NCBI RefSeq assembly: GCF_018320785.1
Contig: NC_054881.1
Coordinates: 20,894,275 to 20,958,274 of the forward strand
Source: Cheilinus undulatus
Lineage: Eukaryota; Chordata; Actinopteri; Labriformes; Labridae
DNA: 64,000 nucleotides
Direction of reading: 5' to 3'
Shown here piece after piece: positions 1 through 51,725 of the stretch. The first letter of the stretch is position 1. Each line of letters opens with the position of its first letter. The translations under genes and the position numbers were made by a program. The notes beneath the pieces were generated by a model, which was not told where the DNA came from, did no database searches, and saw nothing but the letters and a program-made list of their open reading frames with translations.

Positions 1-3000
1 AGGAGTCTGAGACGAGTCCGCAAGGAAATTGTGCGTCCCCACGATGCCCTCCGCCTCCTCAAGCAGCCTCGCGCTGGCACTCGAATGGCTGTGAGATCTG
101 CAGACTACATGGCACAGACCCTCCGTCTGCTGCACGAGAGGTCACCACATTCATAAACGCTCCTCAACGCAACAGGTAAGACACGCAGCAACCAAACAAA
201 GACAGCGCAGACAACCACAGTCATTATTAAGTTTTTGTGTGACAACCTTTCCCCATTCTTGGTTCAGGCTCAGAGGTGTAGGGTTTCTGGTGTCACGATG
301 TGCTCAATGCAATCACTTCAAAGTAATGTTAAGAACTAGACAAAAAAAGTTGTCAGACATGCGTGTGCATTGTTAGTCCTTGAAAAATGTCTTTTGTGTT
401 TTTTGTAGATTTGCTCACAAAAGAAGACCTGAAGAAGCTAGTTGAAATAACCGGATGTGCAGCTCGGGTCACTTTTCCAGAGTGTCGCACCACACCAAAC
501 ATTAACAAGTATCGCACAGCCACCAGCGTCTGCAACAACGTGTAAGAGAAAGAGATATTTTTATTTTAATAGAATTGCTCCTGTATTCTAACTTCTATAA
601 AGCTATTTGATATATGAAACACTTTAATTTTTTTACATACCTCAGGTTTAAAGTACATTTTAGTGCTACACATCATCTACACTATCAACTTTTTGTCTCG
701 TAGCCTTTCAAAACAGCAATGTGTTGTATATATGTAGAGAGAAAATGTATGTATAGTTTCCCAAGCTGAAATTGGGGCTCTGTGGACATGAACGGTTGCA
801 TGAAACTAGAGGAAATGCTTGTGAAACATCTTAGGCCATCCACTGCAGGTATTGAGTACACTTTCCTTGTTTCTCAAGCTGCATTTCTAAACTTTGTCAT
901 CTCTTACTTGCTTTTAGGAAAACCCTCGCTGGGGAGCTCCAACACCCCCTTCAACCGCTGGCTTCCTGCTGAATATGATGATGGCATCTCGAACCGAAGG
1001 CCTGGAACCCAAACAGAACCTTCAACAACTTCATGCTCCCACTGGTACGGCCCAGAAATCCCACACATTTGCTTTAGCTAACATAATTATTCAAAATTAA
1101 AACATTTCTTTCCTTTCTTCAGGTGCGACAGGTGTCAAATAACATCCTAGCCACAACAGATGCCGGTGTGGTCAGTGATGGAGAATTCTCTCACATGGTG
1201 ACCTTGTTTGGGCAGTGGAACGACCACGATGTCACCTTCACACCATTCTCCCCAAGCATCGTCTCCTTCAGCAACGGGATCGACTGTGAAGAAAGCTGCG
1301 AGAAAACTGAGCCATGCATCCCCATCCCGGTTGGTGTGACAGATCAAATCTCAATATATTGTGTTGCTTTCCTCTAAAGATTATACCTGTAACCTTTGAC
1401 TCACTGCAATGTACAGATCCCTCCTGGTGACCCCCGCCTGCCCACCGGTCCAGAAAGCTGTTTCCCTTCCTTCCGATCCGCCCCAGTTTGTGGAACAGGA
1501 TTCTCGGCATACAACTTTGGTGGAGAACCTGAAAAGAGGGAGCAGATCAACGCTCTGACAGCCTTCCTGGATCTCGGCCAGGTGTACGGCTCTGAGGAGA
1601 GTCTCGCCTTGAATCTTCGCAACCTGAGCAGTGATGATGGCCTGCTGCGCGTGAACACAGAGTTCAGAGATAATGGGCGTGAGCTGCTGCCATTCCACTC
1701 GATGGAAATGAACATGTGCGCCACTCGCAAAAGAGTCACCAATGACTCCAACGCCAGAGAGGTGCCCTGTTTTATTGCAGGTAAAGCATCATGCAACTGC
1801 ACTCAGTTATAAAGAGTTATAGATGTGTTCAATGCTTCTTAGACCAGTATTAAGCAGTCAGAGTACTAATAAGAATTTTGAGTGCCTAAATAAAAAAAAA
1901 ACAATTGAAAAAACTATAATGAAATGACCTGGTATGTTATAAAGAATCACTTATATCTGGCTTATAATCTTTAGATATAGTCAGTTTGAAGGGTATTTTT
2001 GTATTTGTGATGGGTCAGGGCTCATGTTTTGGTTCATGTAGTTGCACAATGAATATGTCAGAGAGGAGATAAAAGGCAATCTTAAACACAGAATTGATGC
2101 TGAAGATGTGAATCAGAAACAGAAATGATCTTTGATCAACTGTTTAAATCTGCCTGTTAGGTGACGTCCGTGTTGATGAGAACATTGCTCTGACTTCCCT
2201 TCACACACTGTTCATGCGAGCATAACCGCCTGGCTGCTGAAGAGATTAAACCCACACTGGGACAGCGAGACCCTCTACCAAGAGGCCCGCAAGATCATGG
2301 GTGCCTACACACAGGTAGGTACTCCTGAGAGTCATTATTTGCCTGAGGGTGTCATACACCCTTCTGTCTTTGACTGAGGATACCACGGTCTGTCTCTCTC
2401 AGGTGTTTGTGTTCAGGGACTACCTGCCTCACATTGTAGGTGGCCAAGCAATGCGCACTCTGCTGGGTCGCTACCCCGGCTACGATCCCAATGTTGACCC
2501 CAGCATTGCCAACGTCTTTGCAACAGCAGCTTACCGCTTTGCCCACCTGGCCATCCAGCCACTTCTGTCTCGTCTTGATGCAAATTACAGGGAGCACCCT
2601 CAGTTCCCCAGCGTCCCCCTGTTTGAAGCCTTCTTCACCCCCTGGAGAGTTATCTTTGAGGGTGAGTTATCCAGAGAAAAGTTTCCAAGTCATTACTGTA
2701 AATTGTCACCCTAATTTTATTTCCTGTCTTTACCTCCAGGTGGTATTGACCCCCTGCTCCGTGGTTTGGTTGGCCACCCTGCTAAACTGAACACTCAGGA
2801 TCACATGATGGTGGACGCCCTAAGAGAAAGGTTGTTCCAGTTTGTGCAGCATCTGGCTCTGGACCTGGGCTCTCTCAACATGGAAAGAGGACGCGACCAT
2901 GGCCTGCCTGGTATCTCTCGCTTTCTCTGAGTGCTCTGCTTTTTGAATTTTGAATTTTAAAGCTCTTCTTTCAGTCCTCAACCACGCTGCTTTTTCTTTT

Positions 3001-4110
3001 CTTTTTTTTTTTAACTCTTGAAGGCTACAATGCGTGGCGCCGATTCTGTGGCCTGTCTGCACCCAGAAACCAGGCGCAGCTTGCTCAGGTCCTGAACAAC
3101 ACTGACCTGGCCAGAAGGCTGCTGCAGCTCTATGGTACACCTGAAAACATTGATATCTGGCTGGGTGGAGTGGCAGAGCCGTTTGTGGAGGGTGGCCGTG
3201 TTGGACCTCTGTTTGCCTGCCTCATTGCACAACAGTTCAAGAAGATCCGCCAAGGTGACAGGTTAGTATACATGTATTGGAAACATGGTCTTTGAAGCAC
3301 TGGTCAACTGACTTTGACTAGTTCTGCCCAATACAACATCATGCTGTAAAATAAAATTCAGTTCTGTTCAAAAAGTGAACACATTTTGACTGAGGTGTTA
3401 AATAAATGCTAGCTGCACACTAAAACACAACCTCAAAAATAAATGCATTTCTAATAAAGTCTCACTATGTTTTCTTTGTCCCTGCTCCTCTTGTTTGAAT
3501 CAGACTTTGGTACGAGAATCCCGGCGTTTTCACCGCACGTCAGAGATCAGCTCTGTCCAGGGCTTCATTATCAGGGATCATTTGTGACAACACTGGAATC
3601 ACATCCATTACCCAGGACCCGTTCAGTGTGATTACACAGAGGAACCCACTTGTTAGCTGTTCCAGCATTACGAGACTGGACCTGTCGGCCTGGAGGGAGG
3701 GGTGTTCAGGTGAAACAGCACAGCACCAGACTCTTTGACCTCAGGGCAGGGGGGGCGGCACCATTTTCACAATCATTTGTCACCCACTGTTTAACCTCGT
3801 GTGTTTTATTTCTTCTCTAACCCACTTGTACGGAAACCGTTCTTCATGTGTGGTGTTTAATCTTGCAGACTCGGGTGGTAGCTGTAATGAAGTCAGTGCA
3901 GCAAAGGTCGGTTTTAAATACTAACAGTAGTTTCACATTTTAAGAGCACAATGTAGCCACACTTTCTGAAAAAAAGTGCACATTTAAATCACGAAACACC
4001 CTTTGAACTTAACATTTTGTAACCCCGGTGAAAGTGGTGTTGTAAAACAAGAACATTGTTGGAAAAACTTATTTGTACAGGTTTTAACTTGACCTTTTCT
4101 AAATGAACAG

Positions 4111-4179
4111 ACTGTGATGGACTCGGAATCCGCGGACCAAGAGGACCAAGAGGTCCTCCAGCCCCTCAAGGACAACAAG
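4111..4179 (+). CDS. Collagen-like exon, copy A (one Gly to Ala break)
   Basis: A 69-nt phase 1/phase 1 exon reading [15 protein letters not shown] then PPAPQGQQG. The Gly-X-Y register of copy B is broken by one Ala (GCC for GGC), and two Arg at Y positions have become Gln. Such a Gly change would weaken a collagen triple helix, which fits relaxed constraint on copy A. Confidence 0.75.
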
Positions 4180-4439: not shown

Positions 4440-4726
4440 GGAAGAGGATTAGGGCCACTGAGACCATTTTTTTTAAAACTTGTGAGAAAAAAGTCAGAAT
4501 TCTGATATTAAAGCCAGAATTCAAACTTTAATCTCAGAAATCTGACTTTAAACTCAGGAAAAAGTCAGAATTCTAAAAAAAAAAAGTCAGGATTCTGAGA
4601 TTAAAGTCCAAATCCTGAGAAAAAAGTCAGAATTCTGCCTTCAATCTCAGAATTCTGACGTTTTCCCACAAGTAAAAAAAAAAATTGCGTCTCAGTTTTT
4701 TTTTTCAGTGGCCTTAATCCTCTTCC
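4440..4726. repeat. Foldback element with tcagaattctga array, copy A intron
   Basis: Inverted ends ggaagaggattagggccactga (left) and its near-complement at the right edge enclose A- and T-runs and a string of short related units built on the palindrome tcagaattctga with agtcagaattct spacers. The element sits in the intron between the collagen and C1q exons. It has no coding capacity, and looks like a non-autonomous foldback or MITE-type repeat. The partner copy is at 20,570-20,877. Confidence 0.65.
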
Positions 4727-4829
4727 TTACCCCTAAACTCTATCTAAAGATAGATTATTTCTATTATATTTAATTTTGGTGCCCACTATCACTGCTGTTA
4801 GGTAGGTGTCAGTAGCAGTAATATGTTAT

Positions 4830-5200
4830 GATACACTTTGTTGTCCCCTTGGGGAAATTTGTCTGCATATTATAACATATAAGAACAATAGCATCAACAA
4901 TCCACATGTACACAGTGTTGCACATGCCAGTGAAAGATGCAACCAGTAAATGAAGTGTATTACAAGGACTTGTATGGTAAGATTTTCATAGAAATGAAAC
5001 ATGGTGATAATTACAATGAGTAAAAGATAAAATACAGATGAAATATAAAACAGTAAAGTATAGAAAACAGAGATCACCATGATGTTGTCGCAGCATGCTT
5101 CATAAACATCAAAGTTCTTGACAAGTGAAACATTGAAATGTTTATGATAAAAGCTGATCCAAAGACAATAATGTGAGACCATAATGTCAGTCGAAACCAT
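4830..5200 (-). repeat. Possible Rex1/L2-like LINE 3' end, copy A intron
   Basis: On the minus strand this carries caaatttccccaaggggacaac close to its 3' edge, a string seen at the 3' ends of fish Rex1/L2-group LINEs. The rest is A/T-rich without a reverse transcriptase domain. It was present before the tandem duplication because copy B has it at 20,981-21,351. Assignment is by recall of the 3' end motif only. Confidence 0.4.
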
Positions 5201-5255
5201 ATACCATGATTTTAAGCAGAATGTTTAATGAATCTGAACTTGTGTATCTCTGCAG

Positions 5256-5701
5256 GTCCAGTAGGACCCCCAGGGCCCAGAGGTCCCCCTGGACCAACAT
5301 CACTCAACCTTAATGCTTCACAGCCAAAATCTGCCTTCTCTGTTCTCCTGGGCAAGTACATCTCCACCTCAGACAGAATCATCCATTTCCATCAAATCAT
5401 CTACAACGAACAGAACCATTACAGCCCAGAGTCTGGTATGTTTACATGTGTCATCCCCGGTGTCTACCAGTTCAGCTTTGTCTGCATATCCTACAACGGC
5501 GTAGTGAGCATGGACCTGTGGCGTAACAACAGGGTGGTACTGAACAGTTACCACACTTATCAGGGAGGTCGCCATTTGGCATCAGGGGACACGGTGATGC
5601 TGTTGAAGGCGGGAGACAGAGTGTGGGTGGAGGCCATAGATGGGAGCAGCAGCTTGAGCAGCAAAAGCTACCTGTCTGGACACCTGGTCTTCACTGTGTG
5701 A
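5256..5701 (+). CDS. C1q globular domain exon, copy A (open)
   Basis: Last coding exon of copy A; acceptor AG at 5254-5255, stop TGA at 5699-5701. In phase 1 it finishes the collagen stretch ([14 protein letters not shown]) and then encodes a C1q/TNF-like domain of about 130 residues. Family hallmarks are present: SAFSVLLG at the start, FTCVIPGVYQF in the middle, [16 protein letters not shown], and a C-terminal SGHLVFTV. The exon is 446 nt, which closes the frame exactly from phase 1. C1q heads form trimers and bind varied ligands in complement C1q, adiponectin and cerebellin relatives. This is the better preserved of the two C1q exons in the window. Confidence 0.85.
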
Positions 5702-7353
5702 CGCTAACACTTTATCTCCAGGCTTAAACTTCTAATACACCGGTGTTCTGTCTGCTTTGGAATCTCTTTTCATGACTTCACCTTTTTGTACTAAAATACA
5801 CGCACAAAAATCAGCTTTTATTGAATATCTTATAATTTCATGTATTATTTTTTTCTTTTTGGTCTATGAGGCAGACATGGGCACAACACACAAACTCATG
5901 TTTATGTACATGTTTTTATCCTTATGGAAACAAACAAATTTTATTTTTAATTCATCAAGCGACCTTATGAACATGAAATATGATTGCAGGAAATCTATAT
6001 TATTCTGTTACAGCATGTAGTCTTTCATCAGTGCCAAATTTATATGATGGAATTTGCTGGTGTTATAAGAGATAATTTTATGCACTGATGAAATCAAGCA
6101 TGCATTTTTAATGCTGTGTTGTGCTTTGACTGTGAGGCTAATTTTTACTGTAACTTTCATATTTATCTGTATTTTGCATTGAATTAATAAACTGAACTGC
6201 ATTGAATGTGCTTGTGTTCTATTCTTAATGATAAATCAGGAAGTATTTCATGTATAGTGGTTAGTGGCTATTTTTCTTGGGGGAGGGGGACAAAATAAAT
6301 TGAGTTTAAATCAAACATAATCAAATGGACACTGATGCACCCTGGGGATGTTATGTACACAGGCAAAAGAAGTTCAGTGCTTGCTGGTTCTCTACTTATC
6401 TTTCTTTCTATTTCATCTCAGGTGCCTAAAGCATTACCAAATTACCCAGTTAAACTAAATTGCTAATAATGTAAAACTAAATATACTTGAATAGATAATT
6501 AGCAAAAGATATTCTTTAAGTATTGAAAATAAAGAAATCCCCCGACAATAATCAACAAAGGTTGCCAACTGATGTAAGCAAACTAAATAAAAACTACAAG
6601 TAAATAACTCCTACATCATGGATACTTACCGTATGTAAATCACAGAGGTGGCAAAACAATAAAAAGCAGGTTAGCAAAAGTTGAAAAGCAAAAATTTCTT
6701 CATGTCCATGCATCCAAGTAAAAATTTTCTTTTTAATGCAGTACTTAAAGTTTAACTCCCATAAATCAGGATTCCCCAAGAGGATCTGGCTGCAGACGTA
6801 TATATTACCCACTCACTGTGACAGAAAGGGGCTGGTTTTCACAACAGCAGTATTTTATTATTAAAAATGGAAAATTTACTGAGGGGGATCAATTTGAATT
6901 GAACACACCACAAACAAAGGGAACCCCAAAGAGGGTTACGGTTAGGTGAAGAGGGAGGGGGGTGAAATTAAAAAGAACAAACTACAAACTAGAGAAAAAT
7001 CCAACAAGGGTAGCACATCACTTCCTGCCCCAACATCAAGTTCACCCCATTGTAGAGGTCATCAACAGGTGAGCCCAAAACGCCCCACTATAGATCTGCA
7101 GCCAGCTGCTTCTCGGATTCCCATGCAGATTTGGTCCAAAACAGTGAAAAACTACACATTTTCAGAAATACTGCATCATATATAATCTCTTTTATGCTGT
7201 AAAACTAATTTCTTTGTAAGTTTTGTCTTTATATATATCTGTCTATAAGAAATGCAGTCCCAAGCAAAAAAAAAAATCCATTCACTGATAGTTCCTGTAT
7301 ATAGAGCCATCTTTCCATAAATGCCTGATTCATGTCATGATATGACCAGTAAA
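5702..7353. other. Copy A 3' UTR and 3' flank
   Basis: Holds the 3' UTR to about 6,210 and then non-coding flank that matches 21,850-23,412. A segment at about 7,192-7,278, ending in an A-run, is absent from copy B. No gene is seen. Confidence 0.7.
6186..6191 (+). promoter_or_regulatory. Poly(A) signal of copy A
   Basis: AATAAA about 485 nt after the C1q stop, followed by a GT-rich stretch (gaatgtgcttgtgtt). It marks the likely 3' end of the copy A transcript near 6,210. The same signal sits in copy B at 22,334-22,339, so the 3' UTR was duplicated with the gene and is nearly unchanged. Confidence 0.65.
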
Positions 7354-9716
7354 GGGGGCTGAGGACTGAACCTTGGGGAACGCCTGCTTGGGGGGTGAAG
7401 GGGGTGGAGATGGAGGTGGAGACTTTGACTTTTATCTGGCGGTTGTTGAGGAGGCTTGAGATGATGGATTGGGTGGGTGAGGGGAGTCTGAGGTTATTGT
7501 CTAGAAGTCTGTAGATCAGTCCGTTATGCCATACTTTGTCGAATGCTTTCTCAATGTCAAAAAATATTGCTATGGTGAGTTGTTTTTTGTTGAAGTTCCG
7601 GTAGACGTCTTCTGAGAGTCTGAGTATGTTGTCTGTGGTTGTTCTTCCTTTCCTGAATCCAGCTTGATGTATTGCTAAAAGTCCAAGTGTGTTGATATGA
7701 AGGGTGAGGCGTGATGTGATGATTCTTTCGAAGAGTTTTCCAGTGTGACTGAGGAGGCTGATGAGGCGGCAGCTGGAGGGGTTGTGGGGATCTCTACCGG
7801 GTTTATGGATCATGGTGATGAGGGCAGATTTCCAGGGTGAAGGGAAGCGACCAGATGTGATGAAGGAGGTGAAGAGCTGTCCAAGGTGCTGAAGGTAGAT
7901 GACTGGGGCTTGTTTTATTAGGATGGTGTCTATGGTGTCTACTCCGGGGGCTTTATTTTTCATTTTCTTGAGGTGTTGTTGGATTTCCTTTGTTGTAACT
8001 GGGTCGGTGAGGGGATGGGGCTCTGTGGTGGGGTTTGCTGGGTTGGTCCGGGTTGTGTTGTGTTTGGAGATTTCCTTGTCGACGTGGGTTTTCCAGTTGT
8101 TGTCAAAGTGTGGCTGATTTGGACATGAATGGATGGTTACAGAATAGTGTGGCTTTGTCTGTGTTGTTGGTGATTATTGTATATGCAGATTTGAGATGTG
8201 GTGTGTTGTTGTGGTCCATGTCACCCTCGGTGGAGGGTGAGTTGTGTTTTGATGTTACTTTGTATTTTGTTGATTTCCGTTTTGGTGAGGGGTGATCTGG
8301 TTTGGATGTATTCTCTGCTGAGTTTTTGTTTGTGTTTGATGAGCTGAAGAAGGTGGTGGGGTAGTGACTGTGGTGGGGTTTTTGTTGATTTGAGGGGTAT
8401 GGTTTCTTCTCTGGCTTGGGATAGTAGTTGGCTGAGGTGGGTTGCTTGTTGGTCCAGGTTTTGGGTGGTGGAGGGGTGATGTCCTTAAGTTTTCCTTCTA
8501 TATATGATTTGTAGGTGTCCCAGTTTGCTTTTCTGTAGTTGTATTTCTTTGTTGTGATTGATTGGAGCTGGAAGGAGAAGGTGGTGAGTACTGGTAGATG
8601 GTCACTGGAAAGATGGTTGGTGGTGGAGAAGCTGTGGAGTCTTGCGGCCAGGTCAGGGGTGCATAAGATGAGGTCCAGCATGTCTGGGTTGCTGGTCAGT
8701 GAGGATATGTGTGTGGGTTCATTGGTGTTGATTATTGATAAGTTTGTGTCCTGTAGAATCTGTTTGAGTGCTGTTCCGTTTGAGTTGGTTTTATTGCAGT
8801 GGAAGTTGGTGTGTTTGGAGTTGAGGTCACTCATGATTAGAGAGAGGCTGGGGTTGGAGGTGGCTTTGAGAAGGGGGGCTGAGGGTTTGATTTCAGGGGG
8901 ACAGTAGATGCTGGTGACGGTGATGGTGTGATGGGAGTGGAGTTTGATTGTTATTGCGACGTATTCATTTCCGTTGAGTTCTTGTGATGAGAGACCAAAA
9001 TCAGTTTGACTGTAGTTGATGTTGTTTTTGACTAAGATGGCGGCTCCTCCTCCATGTCCTGTTTGGCGTTCTCTTCTGATGATGTGGTAACCAGGGATGC
9101 GGATGCGGGATGATTTGGAGAGAGGAGTTTCATTTATGGAGGCAATGGATATGTTCTTGGTGTTGAGTAGATGGATTAATTCTTCTTTATTTCCTCTGAT
9201 TCCTCGGATGTTTATGTGTAGAAAGGTGGTGAGTGACATTATAGAGGCTTTTAGGTAGGTGGGGTTTATTGGTTTTGGTGGATGGAGAGGTTTTAGACAG
9301 TGAAGGTGGTGTGTTTCCTAATGCTTTGGATTATTTGTTTGATTCTGTTGTCGTTCATTGAGAGTTTCTTCAGGTCATCACAGAGGTGGGTGAGGTGGGT
9401 GCTCTTTGTAGGGAGTAGACTGGGGATGTTGGAGGTGGATGTTTTCCTGGCTGAGGGTCCGGCTGGTGGGAGTTTGGTGGGAGTCGGGGTCATGTGTGAT
9501 AGGTAGACGGGACAGGTTTTGGAGGCGGCAGAGTGTGATCCAGAGCAGTTGGCGCATGTGGCTTCTCTTTTTTCTTTTTGGCATGTTTTATGGTGGTGGT
9601 TTTCTCCGCATCTGAGGCAGACTGTGGGAGTATTGCAGCTGGTGGATATATGGTTGAACTGTTGGCATTTGTAGCACTGACGGATGGTGGGTGGGGGCCG
9701 GGCCTCATCCACTCTT
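7354..9716 (-). mobile_element. Non-LTR retrotransposon (LINE) fragment, lacking 3' part of RT
   Basis: Minus-strand LINE. ORF1 remnant (about 9,716-9,293) has three zinc knuckles: CYKCQQFNHISTSC, CLRCGENHHHKTC and CANCSGSHSAASKTC. ORF2 starts at 9,239 with an APE endonuclease: INIRGI, the INET glutamate, GHGGGAAILV, SDLNSKH and SSDHLPV. The reverse transcriptase follows (about 7,963-7,354): NKAPGVDTI, HQAGFRKGRTTTDN, FDIEKAFDKVWH and GVPQGSVLSPL. It stops just after that box, so the YADD motif and the 3' end are missing. Frameshifts lie between endonuclease and RT (8,103-7,963). Knuckles plus APE suit the I/Jockey group (Nimb-like in fish), which is inference. LINEs usually lose the 5' end, so loss of the 3' end is odd and fits a duplication breakpoint at 7,353/7,354. 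Confidence 0.85.
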
Positions 9717-9758
9717 TACTGAAACAGGTCCATGTAAAAGCCGTCGTGGAGAAGGCCA

Positions 9759-9843
9759 GGACGTAGCAGGGCCGAGGACTGCTGAGGGTGAAGTCTTCAC
9801 AGAGGACGTAGCAGGGCCGGGGACTGCTGAGGGTGAGGTCCAT
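9759..9843 (-). repeat. Two-unit 45-bp tandem repeat
   Basis: Two units with a 45-bp period, each starting ggacgtagcagggcc on the plus strand (9,759 and 9,804). On the minus strand they follow an ATG at 9,843 and read in frame as LSSPRPCYVL twice. The frame runs into a shadow frame of the LINE zinc-knuckle region, so a real protein is doubtful. The repeat may belong to the LINE 5' region. Confidence 0.6.
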
Positions 9844-9879
9844 GGCTGGGGCTCAAGGAGACAGAGGTGTAGGAGCCAA

Positions 9880-12800
9880 TGAGCGCTACTTTATAAATAG
9901 GAACCAATCTTTATCTGGGCAGGTGTTCCGCCCGGAAGTAAAACAGTTTTTGACCGCTGAAGACACCGGCATAGTGAAATGTTTGTTCGTGTTGGATGAA
10001 TGTTAAATTACGATTGCTTAGTGCTCATAGGTGTTTTGGAGCAATAAATGCACAGATTATTGCATCGCAAGCTTTTGTCTCGGACTCTCTTCATCAGATG
10101 CGGTAAGGTTTGTCAGCGCGTCAGTTGGCTAAATCCCAGTGGAGCACCTCAGGGGCTTCAAGCATTGGCTTAGCCTCTAAACAACACATTTTAATTAAAA
10201 TCTGGATGCACAATTACAGACTGACTTTAATACATTTTATTTAATGTTTAAAAAGTTTCAGCTCTGTACACACAATCATGCAACACCAGTTCAATTTACA
10301 CACACAGATCTTGGTTATGAAAATGAAGTCAACTATTAATTCCTAATTCTTCAATAATAACACAACTAAATCCAATAACCTTTCTATTGCTCTGCTTCAA
10401 CAACAAAAATAAAAATCCCCAAACTTAATCAAATAAAAAAGAAACACAATGAAAACTTGGTTATGTTGGGCTAGAAATCTAAATAAGACCAAAGACAGAA
10501 GGGTGAAGTGCAGCCTGGGGAAGTGTGTGTTGAGAAGTTCTTCTTTTAATTTAATTTTGAGGAAAACATTTTAAACAAGAGGTTTTAGGGTGATTTGTTT
10601 ATGTTCAGACTCTCTTCAGTTTTCACTGGTTCCTGTCTAAATGGTATTTTGCCTTTGTCTGAAAAGAAGGAAACTATTTTTTGAACAAAAGACAAGATGT
10701 GACCTTTTGTTTCTCAAACATACTTTTTGTGTGGCAAGACTCTTGAAAGCAAGACTTAGAAAACTCTTTCAAGTTTTTGACCCTAAGCTCAGGTCATGTT
10801 AGTGCATAAAACTATTTTAAAAGCTGTCAAAGAGACTATATGACCCTTAATGTTTTTGATGTTTCCTCATATTAATACAGATTTCAGACTTTAGAACATG
10901 TTTGAGCTTCTTCAGTTTAAGGTATCTATAAAATGTCACTTCCTGCATGTTGGAAACTTCTTTTAACCTAACAAGTCTAGTAACAGGAGATACTTTGACT
11001 TTATTGTTTCCAAGTGTGTTATTTCCTGTTCACAGAGAAGGTTAGGCCTGTTCTGTTCAACTCTGTACACTGATTTATTGTCATCATAAATGACATGATG
11101 ACTCAAAGACAGCTCTGCTTCCTTGACTGAGGGGGATTATACTAACAACAACAAAACTGTGAGGCGTTGTTGAGTCATGCAAAAATCCCATATGTTTGTA
11201 TCCAAAAATACTTTTGAAAATGTTCTAATGGATGTGCACAACTTTTTGCGTAACAGCTAATAGCTGAGTTACCCACATGCAGCAGCAGGCTCCTGTCAAA
11301 TACTTAAAACTAGAGGCAGCCTTATTCAAAGAAAGAAAAAAAACAGTGCAGAGATGTGATTGCTTGCTGAAGTCTGGCATTGAGTAATGTTTCTGCCATG
11401 TTTCAGCTAATTTCTGCTTTTTTGACTTCCTTCACAGAGAACTGGGCAGGAGTGGTGCAACTTCCCTGAGCATGATACAAACCAAATCATTTTCTGTTTG
11501 AAACACAACCTCACATTTTGTTAACTACAGACAAACTTGACTTTGAGCTGAAATAGAAGATAAACAGAAAATTCCATTTTCACTAGAAAATAAATTTAAC
11601 ATTTTTTCTGCAAGGAAATAGTCACAATCGTCTTTAAATCTTTTTAAAGGTCGATTGAAGGCATTGGAGGATGATGCTTCGAGTTGTAGATGTTTTGACC
11701 AATGACTTTGTGCTCTGTGATTTGGGATTGGTTAGATCTGTGTTTATAACTGTTATATTTCATGTCTGTAACTCTGTTCATTGTGCTGCTGCCTTTCTTG
11801 GCCAGGACAATCTTGTAAAGGAGATTACTGATCTCAATGAGGTTTTCCTAATTCATTCTGCTATCGAGGGACAACAGAAGAGAAGAGTCAAGCTATTGAC
11901 GAAGTACCAGGCGCCTTTTGCTGGCTGAGCATAGCGGGTGAGAAGGAGTGTAGACCTGGATGAGGGATTCCAGGTTAACAGGAGCCATTTTAGTTACTGC
12001 TTTGTAAGCTATGATTAGAGTTTTGAATTTGATGCGAGCTGCATCATGGAAGCGAGTGTAGAGAGATGAAAAGAGGAGTGACATGAGCTGTCTGGGGTTG
12101 GTTGAAGACCAGACGTGCTGCTGCTGTCTGGATCATCTGCAGAGGTCTGAACGTGCATGCAGGGAAACATGCCAGTAATGAGTGGATTTTATTTACAAAC
12201 ACTTTAGTAATGCATTACTGCGGTTCAGACCTTTTCACATGATCTCTTGAACAGCTTTATTTCCCTGACTTACCTGGTGATGTCAGGAACCAGGCTATGT
12301 CACTGTCACCTTGACCAGGATCTCATCAACAGGCCCTGAATCTGACTGTTTCGGTTGTTTCGTTTCCTATAATCTGCACTCCCATTTTTGTAAACACTTC
12401 AAGTATTTCACCATTCTGTTTTCCCCCTGTCTAGAGATGAAGGTGATTCATATTTCATATTTTGTCGAGCTTGTAACTGCCTGGAAGTAAATATCAGCCT
12501 TATGTACCAATTTGTTTGTGGAGTTTTAGGCTAGATGTAATTAGATTAGTGTAAGTCTGTTCTAATTCATCCTCCTTCCATAAGTTATAAATTGTGTTCT
12601 TAGAAATAACGTTTTTTCAAACTTTAAAGTGTGTTTTAAGGGCTAAAGTTTTAGGTCTGAATAGTTCTTTTAGTATATTTTTGTGGGCTTCCCATGCAAC
12701 ACAGCACACCATTGATAGGAAAATAAATAATACCAACAGCCAATCTTTATCTTTTTAAAAGCGTAGGAAGCATTACTTTACATTAATTGATCCTGTCCAT

Positions 12801-15212: not shown

Positions 15213-15384
15213 AGAAAGAGGAGGAAGAAGGAACTGTTTTTACTGACACTACCTTCACCTGGACACCCCTGTGGGCGAGGCCTCACGACCTCAGACAGAA
15301 TAAAAGGAGCAACGGGGTGAGACACAGCATCACTGACACCTGATCTCTGAAAGCATCTAAAATCTTCGCAGCCTTGACACACAG
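15213..15384 (+). promoter_or_regulatory. Promoter and 5' UTR exon of peroxidase copy B
   Basis: TATA-like taaaagg at 15,301-15,307 lies about 25-30 bp before the likely start site (about 15,330). A non-coding first exon ends at the donor CACAG|GTAACA (15,384/15,385). Upstream, gaggaggaagaaggaact (from 15,220) has the GAGGAA core bound by PU.1/ETS factors in myeloid promoters. PU.1 use is an inference from the motif and gene class. The matching promoter of copy A is off-window. Confidence 0.55.
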
Positions 15385-15494: not shown

Positions 15495-18400
15495 ATGCAT
15501 CTCTCTGTTCTCTTTGTGCTGGGCGTCTCCCTGGTGCACATTCACTCCAAACCAGCAGGTACATCTTTAGGAACAATTTTCATGTTTATCTAAATTTGTG
15601 CCAGATTGTTTCACAGCACTGGCCTGGTTTATTCTGTCACATTTATGGAGTGTTTATCCTTTTTTGCAGGACAATATTTCAGCAGTAGTCTGGTTCAGCA
15701 GTGTTTTGAGGATGCAAAGACATTGGTGGATAATGCATACAAGTACTCCAGAGAAGAGTGAGTTTGTCTTATGTATGTTTGTGTTTGAAAGATGGACAAA
15801 TGCATTGAAGGATAGTTTTCCTTAGAGATTCCTTAATATGAAAGTCAGAGTATATCTGTGAGTTTTGTAAAGAAAGACAGTGATTTGTATTGTATGCAGC
15901 ATAAAATATGAATTCAAAATTAGAAATCAGGAGATTCTGTTACAATATGAACACAACTTAGCAAAGAATAAAAGGAGAATATTCAGGGTAGAAATGTACT
16001 AAAATGTTGTCATTTATTAATGTAAATCTGTAGCTTACTGGTTGAAAGAGAAATTTCAAATACTTTCTGTTTTTTAATTGTGTGTCTTTTTCTCCTTCAG
16101 GAGTCTGAGACGAGTCCGCAAGGAAATTGTGCGTCCCCACGATGCCCTCCGCCTCCTCAAGCAGCCTCGCGCTGGCACTCGAATGGCTGTGAGATCTGCA
16201 GACTACATGGCACAGACCCTCCGTCTGCTGCACGAGAGGTCGCCACACATTCATAAACGCTCCCTCAACGCAACAGGTAAGACACGCAGCAACCAAACAA
16301 AGACAACGCAGACAACCACAGTCATTATTAAGTTTTTTTGTGACAACCTTTCCCCATTCTTGGTTCAGGCTCAGAGGTGTAGGGTTTCTGGTGTCACGAT
16401 GTGCTCAATGCAATCACTTCAAAGTAATGTTAAGAACTAGACAAAAAAAGTTGTCAGACATGCGTGTGCATTGTTAGTCCTTGAAAAATGTCTTTTGTGT
16501 TTTTTTGTAGATTTGCTCACAGAAGAAGACCTGACGAAGCTTTCTGAAATAACCGGATGTGCAGCTCGGGTCACTTTTCCAGAGTGTCGCACCACACCAA
16601 ACATTAACAAATATCGCACAGCCACCAGCGTCTGCAACAACGTGTAAGAGAAAGAGATATTTTTATCTTAATAGAATTGCTCCTGTATTCTAACTTCTAT
16701 AAAGCTATTTGATATATGAAACACTTTAATTTTTTTACATACCTCAAGTTTAAAGTACATTTTAGTGCTACACATCATCTACACTATCAACTTTTTGTCT
16801 CGTAGCCTTTCAAAACAGCAATGTGTTGTATATATGTAGAGAGAAAATGTATGTATAGTTTCCCAAGCTGAAATTGGGGTTTGATTTTATGCACAAGGCT
16901 CTGTGACATGAACGGTTGCATGAAACTAGAGGAAATGCTTGTGAAACATCTTAGGCCATCCACTGCAGGTATTGAGTACACTTTCCTTGTTTCTCAAGCT
17001 GCATTTCTAAACTTTGTCATCTCTTACTTGCTTTTAGGAAAAACCCTCGCTGGGGAGCTTCCAACACCCCCTTCAACCGCTGGCTTCCTGCTGAATATGA
17101 TGATGGCATCTCCGAACCGAAGGCCTGGAACCCAAACAGAACCTTCAACAACTTCATGCTCCCACTGGTACGGCCCAGAAATCCCACACATTTGCTTTAG
17201 CTAACATAATTATTCAAAATTAAAACATTTCTTTCCTTTCTTCAGGTGCGACAGGTGTCAAATAACATCCTAGCCACAACAGATGCCGGTGTGGTCAGTG
17301 ATGGAGAATTCTCTCACATGGTGACCTTGTTTGGGCAGTGGAACGACCACGATGTCACCTTCACACCATTCTCCCCAAGCATCGTCTCCTTCAGCAACGG
17401 GATCGACTGTGAAGAAAGCTGCGAGAAAACTGAGCCATGCATCCCCATCCCGGTTGGTGTGACAGATCAAATCTCAATATATTGTGTTGCTTTCCTCTAA
17501 AGATTATACCTGTAACCTTTGACTCACTGCAATGTACAGATCCCTCCTGGTGACCCCCGCCTGCCCACCGGTCCAGAAAGCTGTTTCCCTTCCTTCCGAT
17601 CCGCCCCAGTTTGTGGAACAGGATTCTCGGCATACAACTTTGGTGGAGAACCTGAAAAGAGGGAGCAGATCAACGCTCTGACAGCCTTCCTGGATCTCGG
17701 CCAGGTGTACGGCTCTGAGGAGAGTCTCGCCTTGAATCTTCGCAACCTGAGCAGTGATGATGGCCTGCTGCGCGTGAACACAGAGTTCAGAGATAATGGG
17801 CGTGAGCTGCTGCCATTCCACTCGATGGAAATGAACATGTGCGCCACTCGCAAAAGAGTCACCAATGACTCCAACGCCAGAGAGGTGCCCTGTTTTATTG
17901 CAGGTAAAGCATCATGCAACTGCACTCAGTTATAAAGAGTTATAGATGTGTTCAATGCTTCTTAGACCAGTATTAAGCAGTCAGAGTACTAATAAGAATT
18001 TTGAGTGCCTAAATAAAAAAAAAACAATTGAAAAAACTATAATGAAATGACCTGGTATGTTATAAAGAATCACTTATATCTGGCTTATAATCTTTAGATA
18101 TAGTCAGTTTGAAGGGTATTTTTGTATTTGTGATGGGTCAGGGCTCATGTTTTGGTTCATGTAGTTGCACAATGAATATGTCAGAGAGGAGATAAAAGGC
18201 AATCTTAAACACAGAATTGATGCTGAAGATGTGAATCAGAAACAGAAATGATCTTTGATCAACTGTTTAAATCTGCCTGTTAGGTGACGTCCGTGTTGAT
18301 GAGAACATTGCTCTGACTTCCCTTCACACACTGTTCATGCGAGAGCATAACCGCCTGGCTCGTCAGCTGAAGAGATTAAACCCACACTGGGACAGCGAGA

Positions 18401-21400
18401 CCCTCTACCAAGAGGCCCGCAAGATCATGGGTGCCTACACACAGGTAGGTACTCCTGAGAGTCATTATTTGCCTGAGGGTGTCATACACCCTTCTGTCTT
18501 TGACTGAGGATACCAAGGTCTTTCTCTCTCTCAGGTGTTTGTGTTCAGGGACTACCTGCCTCACATTGTAGGTGGCCAAGCAATGCGCACTCTGCTGGGT
18601 CGCTACCCCGGCTACGATCCCAATGTTGACCCCAGCATTGCCAACGTCTTTGCAACAGCAGCTTACCGCTTTGCCCACCTGGCCATCCAGCCACTTCTGT
18701 CTCGTCTTGATGCAAATTACAGGGAGCACCCTCAGTTCCCCAGCGTCCCCCTGTTTGAAGCCTTCTTCACCCCCTGGAGAGTTATCTTTGAGGGTGAGTT
18801 ATCCAGAGAAAAGTTTCCAAGTCATTACTGTAAATTGTCACCCTAATTTTATTTCCTGTCTTTACCTCCAGGTGGTATTGACCCCCTGCTCCGTGGTTTG
18901 GTTGGCCGCCCTGCTAAACTGAACACTCAGGATCACATGATGGTGGACGCCCTAAGAGAAAGGTTGTTCCAGTTTGTGCAGCATCTGGCTCTGGACCTGG
19001 GCTCTCTCAACATGGAAAGAGGACGTGACCATGGCCTGCCTGGTATCTCTCGCTCTCTCTGAGTGCTCTGCTTTTTGAATTTTGAATTTTAAAGCTCTTC
19101 TTTCAGTCCTCAACCACGCTGCTTTTTCTTTTCTTTTTTTTTTTAACTCTTGAAGGCTACAATGCGTGGCGCCGATTCTGTGGCCTGTCTGCACCCAGAA
19201 ACCAGGCGCAGCTTGCTCAGGTCCTGAACAACACTGACCTGGCCAGAAGGCTGCTGCAGCTCTATGGTACACCTGAAAACATTGATATCTGGCTGGGTGG
19301 AGTGGCAGAGCCGTTTGTGGAGGGTGGCCGTGTTGGACCTCTGTTTGCCTGCCTCATTGCACAACAGTTCAAGAGGATCCGCCAAGGTGACAGGTTAGTA
19401 TACATGTATTGGAAACATGGTCTTTGAAGCACTGGTCAACTGACTTTGACTAGTTCTGCCCAATACAACATCATGCTGTAAAATAAAATTCAGTTCTGTT
19501 CAAAAAGTGAACACATTTTGACTGAGGTGTTAAATAAATGCTAGCTGCACACTAAAACACAACCTCAAAAATGAATGCATTTCTAATAAAGCCTCACTAT
19601 GTTTTCTTTGTCCTTGCTCCTCTTGTTTGAATCAGACTTTGGTACGAGAATCCCGGCGTTTTCACCGCACGTCAGAGATCAGCTCTGTCCAGGGCTTCAT
19701 TATCAAGGATTATTTGTGACAACACTGGAATCACATCCATTACCCAGGACCCGTTCAGTGTGATTACACGCAGGAACCGACTTGTTAGCTGTTCCAACAT
19801 TACGAGACTGGACCTGTCGGCCTGGAGGGAGAGGTGTTCAGGTGAAACAGCACAGCACCAGACTCTTTGACCTCAGGGCAGGGGGGGCGGCACCATTTTC
19901 ACAATCATTTGTCACCCACTGTTTAACCTCGTGTGTTTTATTTCTTCTCTAACCCACTTGTACGGAAACCGTTCTTCATGTGTGGTGTTTAATCTTGCAG
20001 ACTCGGGTGGTAGCTGTAATGAAGTCAGTGCAACAAAGGTCGGTTTTAAATACTAACAGTAGTTTCACATTTTAAGAGCACAATGTAGCCACACTTTCTG
20101 AAAAAAAGTGCACATTTAAATCACGAAACACCCTTTGAACTTAACATTTTGTAACCCCGGTGAAAGTGGTGTTGTAAAACAAGAACATTGTTGGAAAAAC
20201 TTATTTGTACAGGTTTTAACTTGACCTTTTCTAAATGAACAGACTGTGATGGACTCGGAATCCGCGGACCAAGAGGACCAAGAGGTCCTCCAGGCCCTCG
20301 AGGACAACGAGGTACTTATTTCAAAGATTGCTTTCATACCTCTTTATTCATTTTCTACTGTATCTTCTCAAATGCTCACTGTTTTTAACAATATTCTGCT
20401 TTAGTATATCCTGATACCATAACACGTTCCTGACACTGAGATATTCTGTAATATGTTTTTAGTGAGGCACTCCTCACTTACTACTTATGAAGGAGCCTGA
20501 GCTTAATACTGATGTGTCTACCTGAGCTAAAAAAAAAGAATCTAATTCTAAAGTCAGTCCCCCGACTATGGAAGAGGATTAGGGCCACTGAGACCATTTT
20601 TTTTTAAACTCGTGAGAAAAAAGGCAGAGTTTTGACTCCTGAAAAAAGTCAGAATTCTGATATTAAAGCCAGAATTCAAACTTTAATCTCAGAATTCTGA
20701 CTTTAAACTCAGGAAAAAGTCAGAATTCTAAGGAAAAAAGTCAGAATTCTAAGATTAAAGTCCAAATCCTGAGAAAAAAGTCAGAATTCTGCCTTCAATC
20801 TCAGAATTCTGACGTTTTCCCACAAGTAAAAAAAATTGCATCTCAATTTTTTTTTTCAGTGGCCTTAATCCTCTTCCTTACCCCTAAACTCTATCTAAAG
20901 ATAGATTATTTCTATTATATTTAATTTTGGTGCCCACTATCACTGCTGTTAGGTAGGTGTCAGTAGCAGTAATATGTTATGATACACTTTGTTGTCCCCT
21001 TGGGGAAATTTGTCTGCATATTATAACATATAAGAACAATAGCGTCAACAATCCACATGTACACAGTGTTGCACATGCCAGTGAAAGATGCAACCAATAA
21101 ATGAAGTGTATTACAAGGACTTGTATGGTAAGATTTTCATAGAAATGAAACATGGTGATAATTACAATGAGTAAAAGATAAAATACAGATGAAATATAAA
21201 ACAGTAAAGTATAGAAAACAGAGATCACCATGATGTTGTCGCAGCATGCTTCATAAACATCAAAGTTCTTGACAAGTGAAACATTGAAATGTTTATGATA
21301 AAAGCTGATCCAAAGACAATAATGTGAGACCATAATGTCAGTCGAAACCATATACCATGATTTTAAGCAGAATGTTTAATGAATCTGAACTTGTGTATCT

Positions 21401-21849
21401 CTGCAGGTCCAGTAGGACCCCCAGGGCCCAGAGGTCCCCCTGGACCAACATCACTCAACCTTAATGCTTCACAGCCAAAATCTGCCTTCTCTGTTCTCCT
21501 GGGCAAGTACATCTCCACCTCAGACAGAATCATCCATTTCCATCAAATCATCTACAACGAACAGAACCATTACAGCCCAGAGTCTGGTATGTTTACATGT
21601 GTCATCCCGGTGTCTACCAGTTCAGCTTTGTCTGCATATCCTACAACGGCGTAGTGAGCATGGACCTGTGGCGTAACAACAGGGTGGTACTGAACAGTTA
21701 CCACACTTATCAGGAGGTCGCCATTTGGCATCAGGGGACACGGTGATGCTGTTGAAGGCGGAGACAGAGTGTGGGTGGAGGCCATAGATGGGAGCAGCAG
21801 CTTGAGCAGCAAAAGCTACCTGTCTGGACACCTGGTCTTCACTGTGTGA
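15495..21849 (+). CDS. Myeloid-type heme peroxidase with collagen-C1q tail, copy B
   Basis: Secreted or granule peroxidase (EPX/MPO/LPO family) that would oxidise halides or thiocyanate with H2O2. Exons: 15495-15558, 15670-15757, 16101-16276, 16511-16643, 17038-17167, 17246-17452, 17540-17903, 18284-18444, 18535-18793, 18872-19042, 19156-19393, 19636-19841, then either 20001-20056 or 20243-20311 plus 21407-21849. All phases agree. Signal peptide [18 protein letters not shown]. Active site: Gln228, heme-ester Asp231, distal His232, Ca ligand Asp233, Arg391, heme-ester Glu394, proximal His489. Asn395 replaces the MPO Met that forms the sulfonium bond, so it is EPX/LPO-like. Gly320 stands where MPO has a Ca-binding Ser. 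The core to 19,841 is open; the plain form would be 750 aa and the C1q form about 903. The C1q exon as written has three single-base losses. Exact orthology (mpx or epx) is not settled. Confidence 0.9.
20001..20056 (+). CDS. Alternative terminal exon of peroxidase copy B
   Basis: Acceptor ttgcag precedes 20,001. Joined in phase 1 to the last peroxidase exon it reads [18 protein letters not shown] and stops at TAA 20,054-20,056, giving a peroxidase without collagen or C1q. A donor (AAG|GTCGGT) exists at 20,038/20,039. Using it makes a 38-nt exon that would throw the collagen exon out of frame, so the exon works best as a terminal exon. A weaker donor GTAATG after 20,015 would give an in-frame 15-nt cassette instead. 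Copy A has the same exon at 3,869-3,924. Confidence 0.5.
20243..20311 (+). CDS. Collagen-like exon, copy B
   Basis: A 69-nt exon, phase 1 on both sides, reading [15 protein letters not shown] then PPGPRGQRG. With the start of the C1q exon it makes 11 unbroken Gly-X-Y triplets. It splices in frame straight from the peroxidase exon ending at 19,841, skipping 20,001-20,056. Short collagen stalks of this kind trimerise C1q heads in the C1q/TNF superfamily. Confidence 0.8.
20570..20877. repeat. Foldback element with tcagaattctga array, copy B intron
   Basis: Partner of 4,440-4,726: the same inverted ends and inner palindromic units, but somewhat longer and with a different unit count. The difference shows the array has changed since the tandem duplication. 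Confidence 0.65.
20981..21351 (-). repeat. Possible Rex1/L2-like LINE 3' end, copy B intron
   Basis: Duplicate of 4,830-5,200, with the same ccccaaggggacaac end motif on the minus strand. Confidence 0.4.
21407..21849 (+). pseudogene. C1q domain exon, copy B (frame broken as written)
   Basis: Same exon as 5,256-5,701 but three bases shorter. One C is missing from cccc near 21,608, one G from ggg near 21,714 and one G from ggg near 21,762. The net change is -3, but a stop (TAG, to 21,654) falls inside the shifted stretch, so the product would end after about 60% of the C1q domain. All three losses are in homopolymer runs, as expected of long-read consensus errors. True decay cannot be excluded. 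Confidence 0.75.
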
Positions 21850-22333: not shown

Positions 22334-22339
22334 AATAAA
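22334..22339 (+). promoter_or_regulatory. Poly(A) signal of copy B
   Basis: AATAAA about 485 nt after the C1q stop, in the same context as 6,186-6,191. Likely 3' end of the long transcript near 22,360. Confidence 0.65.
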
Positions 22340-41500: not shown

Positions 41501-41513
41501 TTTAATTTAGATC

Positions 41514-50576
<9,063 letters not shown>

Positions 50577-51159: not shown

Positions 51160-51725
51160 ATGAAGACAAAATTATTTACCCCCCACTATGAAAATTTCGT
51201 TTTTCCCAAGTAAAACAGAACAAGGAATTTTTAACACAGCTTTTCCAAACATTCGAGTCTTGTTCTGGATGTTTAAATTATTTTATTTTGTACACAGGTA
51301 CTAAATTGTTTAAGAAAAACCGAAACTTACCAGGGTCAAAATTATTAGCCCTATTTAGAAGTGACCTTATTGTTGAGCTACTGTACAAACCACTGTGGTG
51401 CGATGATGTGCTTTAACTTTGTAATGCCCTAAAACGTGTGTAATCAAGTTGAAACTGAGGCTTACCTTCCAATTTACATTTAGTATTAAAACTTCAGTAA
51501 GGGTTTTAGCCGTCACTGGAGAAAGCATGGCAAAAACAAAAGAAATCAGTTTAGACTTGCAAAAAAGGATTGTTGATGCTCACAAAGCAGGAGAAGGATA
51601 TATAAAGTTATCACAGCGTTTCCAAGTGTCAAGAACTGGAGAGGGTAGTATGAAGAAATTCAATGAGAGTCACACAGTCCAGAAAAAAAGCCTGGCAGAG
51701 GTAGGAAGAGAATGCATAGAGGAAT
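51160..51725 (+). mobile_element. Truncated Tc1/mariner transposon
   Basis: Starts with Tc1-type end words (gacaaaattatttaccccc). It holds an open transposase N-terminus from 51,527, MAKTKEISLDLQKRIVDAHK, then KLSQRFQVSRTG, the first helix-turn-helix of Tc1 transposases. It is cut after about 65 codons and joins other repeat sequence. No catalytic domain remains. Confidence 0.7.

What the first reader, a model, noticed from the sequence alone, without database searches (positions are those of the whole stretch)
19636..21849. Heme peroxidase fused to a collagen stalk and a C1q head
The last peroxidase exon (ends 19,841, phase 1) splices in frame to a 69-nt phase 1/1 exon of Gly-X-Y triplets and then to a C1q-domain exon that opens with more Gly-X-Y and ends in SGHLVFTV. 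No signal peptide or start precedes the collagen exon, so a separate C1q gene is unlikely. The chimera would place a hypohalite-making enzyme on a trimerising, ligand-binding complement-like head: a possible targeted oxidative effector. I do not recall this domain order from mammals; novelty in fish is not established. Splice and phase logic is seen in the sequence; the function is inference.
Basis: partly seen in the sequence, partly recalled or inferred. Interest (0 to 1): 0.88.

Follow-up and report, generated by a model that had tools for sequence, protein, structure and literature searches.

The report
Peroxidase joined to C1q binding head
A gene for an immune-type oxidant-making enzyme appears to run on into a short collagen stalk and a C1q binding head; a distant intact copy elsewhere in the genome has the same design, but the copy pointed out here has a broken head in this assembly.

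Summary
The gene structure is real. At 15495-21849 (+), 14 coding exons encode a signal peptide, a full myeloperoxidase-family peroxidase, 11 unbroken Gly-X-Y triplets across two exons, and a C1q exon. The C1q exon at 21407-21849 is out of frame: three 1-base deletions relative to copy B, stop at 21652-21654. And it is one of three tandem copies, 91.5-99.5% alike by aligned block. As assembled 0 of 3 is whole: A has a stop and a deletion in its C1q exon, B a whole C1q but broken peroxidase exons, C the reverse. Assembly error and real decay cannot be told apart without reads.

The strongest evidence lies elsewhere: a divergent paralogue on C5 (peroxidase 64.9% identical) is open through 13 coding exons plus a fitting signal exon, in the same order: peroxidase, linker, 11 triplets, C1q. 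The two heads are reciprocal best matches outside their own loci. The fusion is most likely ancient. Nine paper searches on it found no description. A secreted, trimeric, C1q-aimed haloperoxidase is the best reading; function is inference.

The parts
15299..15306 (+). TATA-like element AATAAAAG upstream of the coding start (possible promoter)
   Evidence: motif scan; weak, function not tested
15495..15558 (+). copy C first coding exon: signal-peptide-like [21 protein letters not shown]
   Evidence: AG/GT edges and phase
15670..15757 (+). copy C coding exon 3
16101..16276 (+). copy C coding exon 4
16511..16643 (+). copy C coding exon 5
17038..17167 (+). copy C coding exon 6
17246..17452 (+). 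copy C coding exon 7, with GQWNDHD
17540..17903 (+). copy C coding exon 8
18284..18444 (+). copy C coding exon 9
18535..18793 (+). copy C coding exon 10
18872..19042 (+). copy C coding exon 11
19156..19393 (+). copy C coding exon 12
19636..19841 (+). copy C coding exon 13, last peroxidase exon; An_peroxidase for the whole protein 622.3 bits, residues 144-704
20243..20311 (+). copy C exon 14: CDGLG + Gly-X-Y, 69 nt, phase 1/1
21407..21849 (+). copy C exon 15: Gly-X-Y then C1q; frame broken by three 1-base deletions relative to copy B, first stop 21652-21654
22334..22339 (+). AATAAA downstream of exon 15 (candidate polyadenylation signal)
   Evidence: other AATAAA/ATTAAA occur nearby
3..3709 (+). 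copy B peroxidase exons 4-13 (first 3-175, last 3504-3709; exons 2-3 lie 5' of the window); exons 4, 6 and 9 carry frame-breaking deletions
4111..4179 (+). copy B exon 14 (collagen, with one Gly to Ala: GPPAPQ)
5256..5701 (+). copy B exon 15: intact Gly-X-Y + C1q ending SGHLVFTV*
   Evidence: Pfam C1q 94.1 bits

Best explanation
This is a secreted myeloperoxidase/eosinophil-peroxidase-family haem enzyme whose last peroxidase exon splices in frame into a collagen-like stalk of 11 Gly-X-Y triplets and a C1q head. Shown by sequence: gene structure, reading phases, domain content, and the same order in an intact paralogue on C5. The fusion most likely arose once, before the C17 and C5 genes split, and was lost in the C5 tandem sister. 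The C17 locus was later triplicated; as assembled, each of the three young copies has a damaged frame, by assembly error or by real decay. Inferred: three chains join through the C1q head and stalk, giving one particle with three enzyme domains and a trivalent head. The head would bind microbial or damaged surfaces, so that hypohalous acid is made at the target rather than diffusely.
For: Spliced model with consistent AG/GT edges and phases. Alignment to myeloperoxidase over residues 26-730, E 1.7e-222. Pfam An_peroxidase over all 530 model positions. C1q over model positions 1-127 in copy B (94.1 bits) and 1-124 in the C5 paralogue (92.6 bits). C5 gene: 13 coding exons (44692353-44703405) with AG/GT edges and one open frame; a phase-1 signal-like exon MRWFLCLLVAAFYLMHLDA at 44690788 fits upstream. 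Of these 13 exons, 8 have exactly the length of the C17 exon (88, 176, 130, 207, 161, 259, 171, 238 nt), four differ by 3-9 nt, and the last is 488 against 443-446. Peroxidase identity 359 of 553 positions. The heads of C17-B and C5 are each other's best match outside their own loci: 82.6 bits vs next 70.7, and 82.4 vs next 68.3. In an unrooted tree they are split from 8 other C1q heads with 95% support (8 of 113 matches sampled). Distal GQxxDH, Arg and Glu of the haem-linkage motif, and proximal His are present in C17 and both C5 genes (roles recalled).
Against: No transcript or protein was seen. 0 of 3 C17 copies reads through the whole chimera as assembled. Synonymous:nonsynonymous differences in exons 2-14 are 11:26 (A-B), 16:40 (A-C) and 5:15 (B-C), no sign of purifying selection among the young copies. 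The C5 sister gene ends without a tail, and no Gly-X-Y run of 5 or more was found after it. In C5 intron 14 several ATG frames have a phase-1 GT, the most hydrophobic at 44701400 (1.92), so a separate start there is not strictly excluded. Targeting, trimer formation and activity are not tested. Pfam Collagen scores are below that model's cut-off (22.0 and 22.9 vs 27.2). The C17 stalk cysteines are not shared by the C5 gene.
Confidence: 0.72

Rival explanations
1. The C17 copies are decaying duplicates (pseudogenes or half-genes). The C5 gene is the only working peroxidase-C1q gene, and copy C makes at most a peroxidase with a stalk and part of a C1q head.
For: Each of the 3 copies has at least one broken exon. 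Copy A has a TGA from two adjacent substitutions plus a 1-base deletion in its C1q exon, and a 138-base partial exon 13 repeat. Nonsynonymous differences outnumber synonymous ones in all three pairs. Small indels are as dense in exons as in introns (10 of 22 in 43% of the bases, P 0.83). For copies A and C the indels fit an assumed 1:8 indel:substitution ratio (6 vs 89, P 0.96; 4 vs 28, P 0.48).
Against: Copy B's indels do not fit it: 12 of 3 bases or fewer against 7 private substitutions (P 8e-8). Copy C's peroxidase exons 2-13 are all open.
Confidence: 0.45
2. The frame breaks are base-calling errors in near-identical copies that polishing could not resolve, so one or more C17 copies really encode the whole chimera.
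For: 11 of 11 short exon gaps are deletions private to one copy; 10 of them are 1-2 bases in runs of 2-5 identical bases or two-base repeats. Exon 15 of B and C differ by 3 deletions and 0 substitutions in 443 bases. Copy B's indel excess. The C5 chain, outside the array, shows no frame break.
Against: Deletions in short runs are also common in nature. Copy A's stop is by substitution. Copies A and C show no indel excess. The read type of the assembly is unknown here.
Confidence: 0.5
3. Two neighbouring genes: a plain peroxidase ending after exon 13 by read-through ([12 protein letters not shown]) and a separate C1q-like gene with an unseen start.
For: Reading through the 19842 donor gives a short tail and stop. 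The C5 sister gene ends DLSPWKEDIE* without a tail. Three AATAAA/ATTAAA lie in intron 14 (20662, 20754, 21096).
Against: No clearly hydrophobic start with a phase-1 donor listed in C17 introns 13/14. Phase-1 joins are kept at both C17 and C5. The glycine register crosses a splice junction. The same order is found at two loci with peroxidases 64.9% identical.
Confidence: 0.06

Closest known systems
Myeloperoxidase / eosinophil peroxidase / lactoperoxidase (vertebrate secreted haem peroxidases)
   Same: Alignment over propeptide, light- and heavy-chain regions; distal GQxxDH, Arg...Glu haem-linkage motif and proximal His kept.
   Different: Adds collagen stalk and C1q head after the usual C-terminus. 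Asn in place of the Met of MPO's SSEM motif (its sulfonium link is recalled). Gly for Ser in the LTSFVDAS loop (recalled as a calcium ligand).
Adiponectin, C1q/TNF-related and C1q-like proteins
   Same: Short collagen stretch before a C-terminal C1q domain. Among solved structures the head's top match is an adiponectin chain of 442 residues matched in 3 stretches (195.9 bits); among shorter chains collagen X (73.0) and adiponectin (71.2) are close.
   Different: Those have no enzyme domain (recalled); here the N-terminal part is a full peroxidase.
Peroxidasin and dual oxidase (modular animal haem peroxidases; architecture recalled)
   Same: The principle of a peroxidase joined to other modules.
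   Different: Different partner modules and a different peroxidase subgroup; no C1q (recalled).
Teleost myeloperoxidase as described in flounder (PMC9908613; three passages seen, one in the abstract)
   Same: A fish leukocyte peroxidase.
   Different: Reported as 770 residues with signal peptide and a peroxidase domain; the words C1q and collagen occur 0 times in its main text.

Membership tests
MPO/EPO/LPO haem peroxidases | full-length An_peroxidase domain | tested here: met
   Pfam PF03098 622.3 bits, profile 1-530
MPO/EPO/LPO haem peroxidases | distal Gln/His, Arg, haem-linking Asp and Glu, proximal His | tested here: met
   [22 protein letters not shown] aligned to MPO; residue roles recalled
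Myeloperoxidase proper | Met next to the haem-linking Glu (sulfonium link) | tested here: not met
   MPO RSSEM aligns to RVDEN; also N in C5-1 and C5-2
MPO/EPO/LPO haem peroxidases | hypohalous acid production | not testable with these tools
   needs expressed protein
C1q/TNF superfamily | complete C1q domain | tested here: inconclusive
   met in copy B's exon (94.1 bits, 1-127) and the C5 gene (92.6 bits, 1-124); in copy C only profile 1-44 in frame
C1q/TNF superfamily | collagen triplets before the head | tested here: met
   11 unbroken Gly-X-Y triplets in copy C read directly and 11 in the C5 gene; Pfam Collagen 22.0 and 22.9 bits, below its 27.2 cut-off
C1q/TNF superfamily | trimer formation and ligand binding | not testable with these tools

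The most novel reading that the evidence does not exclude
Fishes carry a class of soluble pattern-recognising haloperoxidases: a C1q head trimerises three peroxidase units and docks them on microbes, so that oxidant is made at the bound surface, uniting complement-like recognition and oxidative killing in one polypeptide.
Probability: 0.35. Interest if true: 0.85.

Novelty: new variant of a known kind. Interest (0 to 1): 0.6.

Why it matters
If made as predicted, this is an enzyme that carries its own complement-type recognition head, a simple answer to how a diffusible, self-harming oxidant might be aimed. It would also mean that fish genes called myeloperoxidase or eosinophil peroxidase may not be plain counterparts of the mammalian enzymes, which matters because peroxidase is used as a granulocyte marker (recalled). 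Even if the C17 copies are dead, the intact C5 gene makes the question directly testable.

Tried and rejected
A cryptic exon at about 20001 in intron 13 was rejected: its 38 nt end in phase 0 and do not fit exon 14 (counted by eye). A self-standing C1q start in introns 13/14 was sought and not found. Two haplotypes put in by mistake do not alone explain three copies in a row, but partial assembly artefact remains open. Exon enrichment of small deletions (11 of 16, P 0.043) was dropped as an argument: that count took in a 5-base exon gap while leaving out long intron gaps and insertions; with all indels of 3 bases or fewer it is 10 of 22 (P 0.83), with deletions alone 10 of 15 (P 0.07). Assigning the enzyme to MPO or EPO failed: copy C scores EPO heavy chain 592.7 vs MPO heavy chain 562.6 bits, while the C5 gene scores MPO 555.7 vs EPO 545.7. 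Paper searches on the fusion gave no description of it; of their hits I saw passages of PMC9908613, PMC6167799 and PMC13337447, the rest only as listings. A trout liver proteome (PMC6167799) lists 'Eosinophil peroxidase' and 'Complement c1q-like protein 2' as separate accessions with near-equal induction (3.915 and 3.917); not used as evidence. The species was not established; one guess (humphead wrasse) was searched in papers and not taken further. C5-1 was not modelled exon by exon; its ending was read by eye. The structure prediction was never ready.

Full report
What was checked. I rebuilt the whole gene from splice edges. Fourteen coding exons, 15495 to 21849 on the + strand, begin after AG and, except the last, end before GT, with matching phases. 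The product starts with [18 protein letters not shown], a signal-peptide-like sequence. It aligns to myeloperoxidase from residue 26 to 730 (E 1.7e-222) and then continues [42 protein letters not shown]. The 11 Gly-X-Y triplets run across the exon 14/15 junction, where a glycine codon is split, so the join keeps the collagen register.

The head is out of frame in the copy named by the finding. In the frame fixed by the stalk, exon 15 gives 81 residues and then a stop at 21652-21654. Compared with the second copy at 5256-5701 of the same window, it lacks one base in each of three runs of 3-4 identical bases and has no substitution in 443 aligned bases.

A tandem array. Adding 40 kb on the left and comparing the region with itself shows three copies: A (5' of the window), B (across the window start to 5.7 kb) and C (15.5-21.8 kb), 91.5-99.5% identical by aligned block, their C1q exons about 16 kb apart. 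Exon by exon: A has a TGA as the first full codon of exon 15, made by two adjacent substitutions, a 1-base deletion in the C1q part, and a 138-base partial repeat of exon 13. B has frame-breaking deletions in exons 4, 6 and 9, a Gly-to-Ala in the stalk, and an intact C1q exon. C has an open peroxidase and a broken C1q exon. So 0 of 3 copies encode the complete chimera as assembled.

Errors or decay. There are 11 short exon gaps, all deletions private to one copy; 10 are 1-2 bases in runs of 2-5 identical bases or two-base repeats, one is 5 bases. Counting all indels of 3 bases or fewer, insertions included, B has 12 against 7 private substitutions, improbable under an assumed 1:8 ratio (P 8e-8), while A (6 vs 89, P 0.96) and C (4 vs 28, P 0.48) fit it (the ratio is my assumption; longer gaps left out). 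Small indels are no rarer in exons than in introns (10 of 22, exons being 43% of the bases, P 0.83). The synonymous:nonsynonymous counts 11:26, 16:40 and 5:15 in exons 2-14 give no sign of purifying selection among the copies. So copy B points to uncorrected errors, copies A and C are compatible with decay, and only reads can decide.

The independent test. The genome search lists 56 exon-level peroxidase matches and 113 C1q matches (lower bounds). Comparing their coordinates, a C1q match lies just downstream of a peroxidase in the C17 array and at one place on C5. There 13 coding exons from 44692353 to 44703405 have AG/GT edges and one open frame. Upstream, at 44690788, a phase-1 signal-like exon MRWFLCLLVAAFYLMHLDA fits. 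The protein runs peroxidase, acidic linker exon (63 nt), 11 unbroken triplets, and a C1q domain (92.6 bits over 1-124 of 127). Eight of the 13 exon lengths equal those of C17 and four more differ by 3-9 nt. Its peroxidase is identical to C17's at 359 of 553 positions. A neighbouring C5 gene, identical to it at 429 of 553, ends DLSPWKEDIE* with no tail. The unrooted four-gene tree joins the two C5 genes with 100% support. The heads of C17-B and C5 are each other's best match outside their own loci and are split from eight other C1q heads with 95% support in an unrooted tree (8 of 113 matches, those already fetched). The simplest history is one old fusion, a split into C5 and C17 lineages, a C5 tandem duplicate that lost the tail, and a late triplication on C17. 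Two independent fusions are possible but less simple.

How it would work. From family knowledge (recalled): C1q heads trimerise and such stalks form triple helices, so the product should be a trimer carrying three enzyme domains on a stalk of about 9 nm. In copy C two cysteines lie just before the stalk (RCSDCDG), a common place for interchain bonds (recalled); the C5 linker has none. Catalytic motifs are kept, the MPO-specific Met is Asn, and a calcium-loop Ser is Gly (roles recalled). The head's best solved-structure matches are adiponectin and collagen X, which do not fix its ligand. Aiming of hypohalous acid at bound surfaces is the role that best fits the parts, but no step of it was tested here.

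Known or new. Ten paper searches were made, nine on the fusion and one on a candidate species. I saw no paper describing a peroxidase-C1q protein; most hits were seen only as listings, and passages of three papers were read. No vertebrate collection other than this genome was available, so automated annotations of the same architecture in other fishes may exist.

Verdict. The architecture is real in the gene structure and is supported by an intact divergent paralogue. The named copy is damaged as assembled. The function is a good hypothesis. It is a new domain combination of known parts; interest 0.6.

Noticed in passing
window 7232-9715 (-): Non-LTR retrotransposon remains (reverse transcriptase, endonuclease, and a zinc-knuckle match below its cut-off) downstream of copy B; the block 4715-9950 that holds them also matches downstream of copy A, whereas the match of B to C ends at 7189/23337.
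   Followed up: partly
window 41511-42206 (+): 232-residue open frame that resembles the lysyl oxidase propeptide from memory; no Pfam match.
   Followed up: partly
window 51425-51724 (+): Sleeping Beauty-type transposase HTH fragment (45.3 bits).
   Followed up: no
G000:C5:44683420-44683584 (+): Lone peroxidase exon fragment between the two C5 peroxidase genes, a likely relic of a further copy.
   Followed up: no
5' of the window, -12264 to -11921 (in L010): Copy A's exon 13 holds a 138-base partial repeat including a second splice donor.
   Followed up: partly
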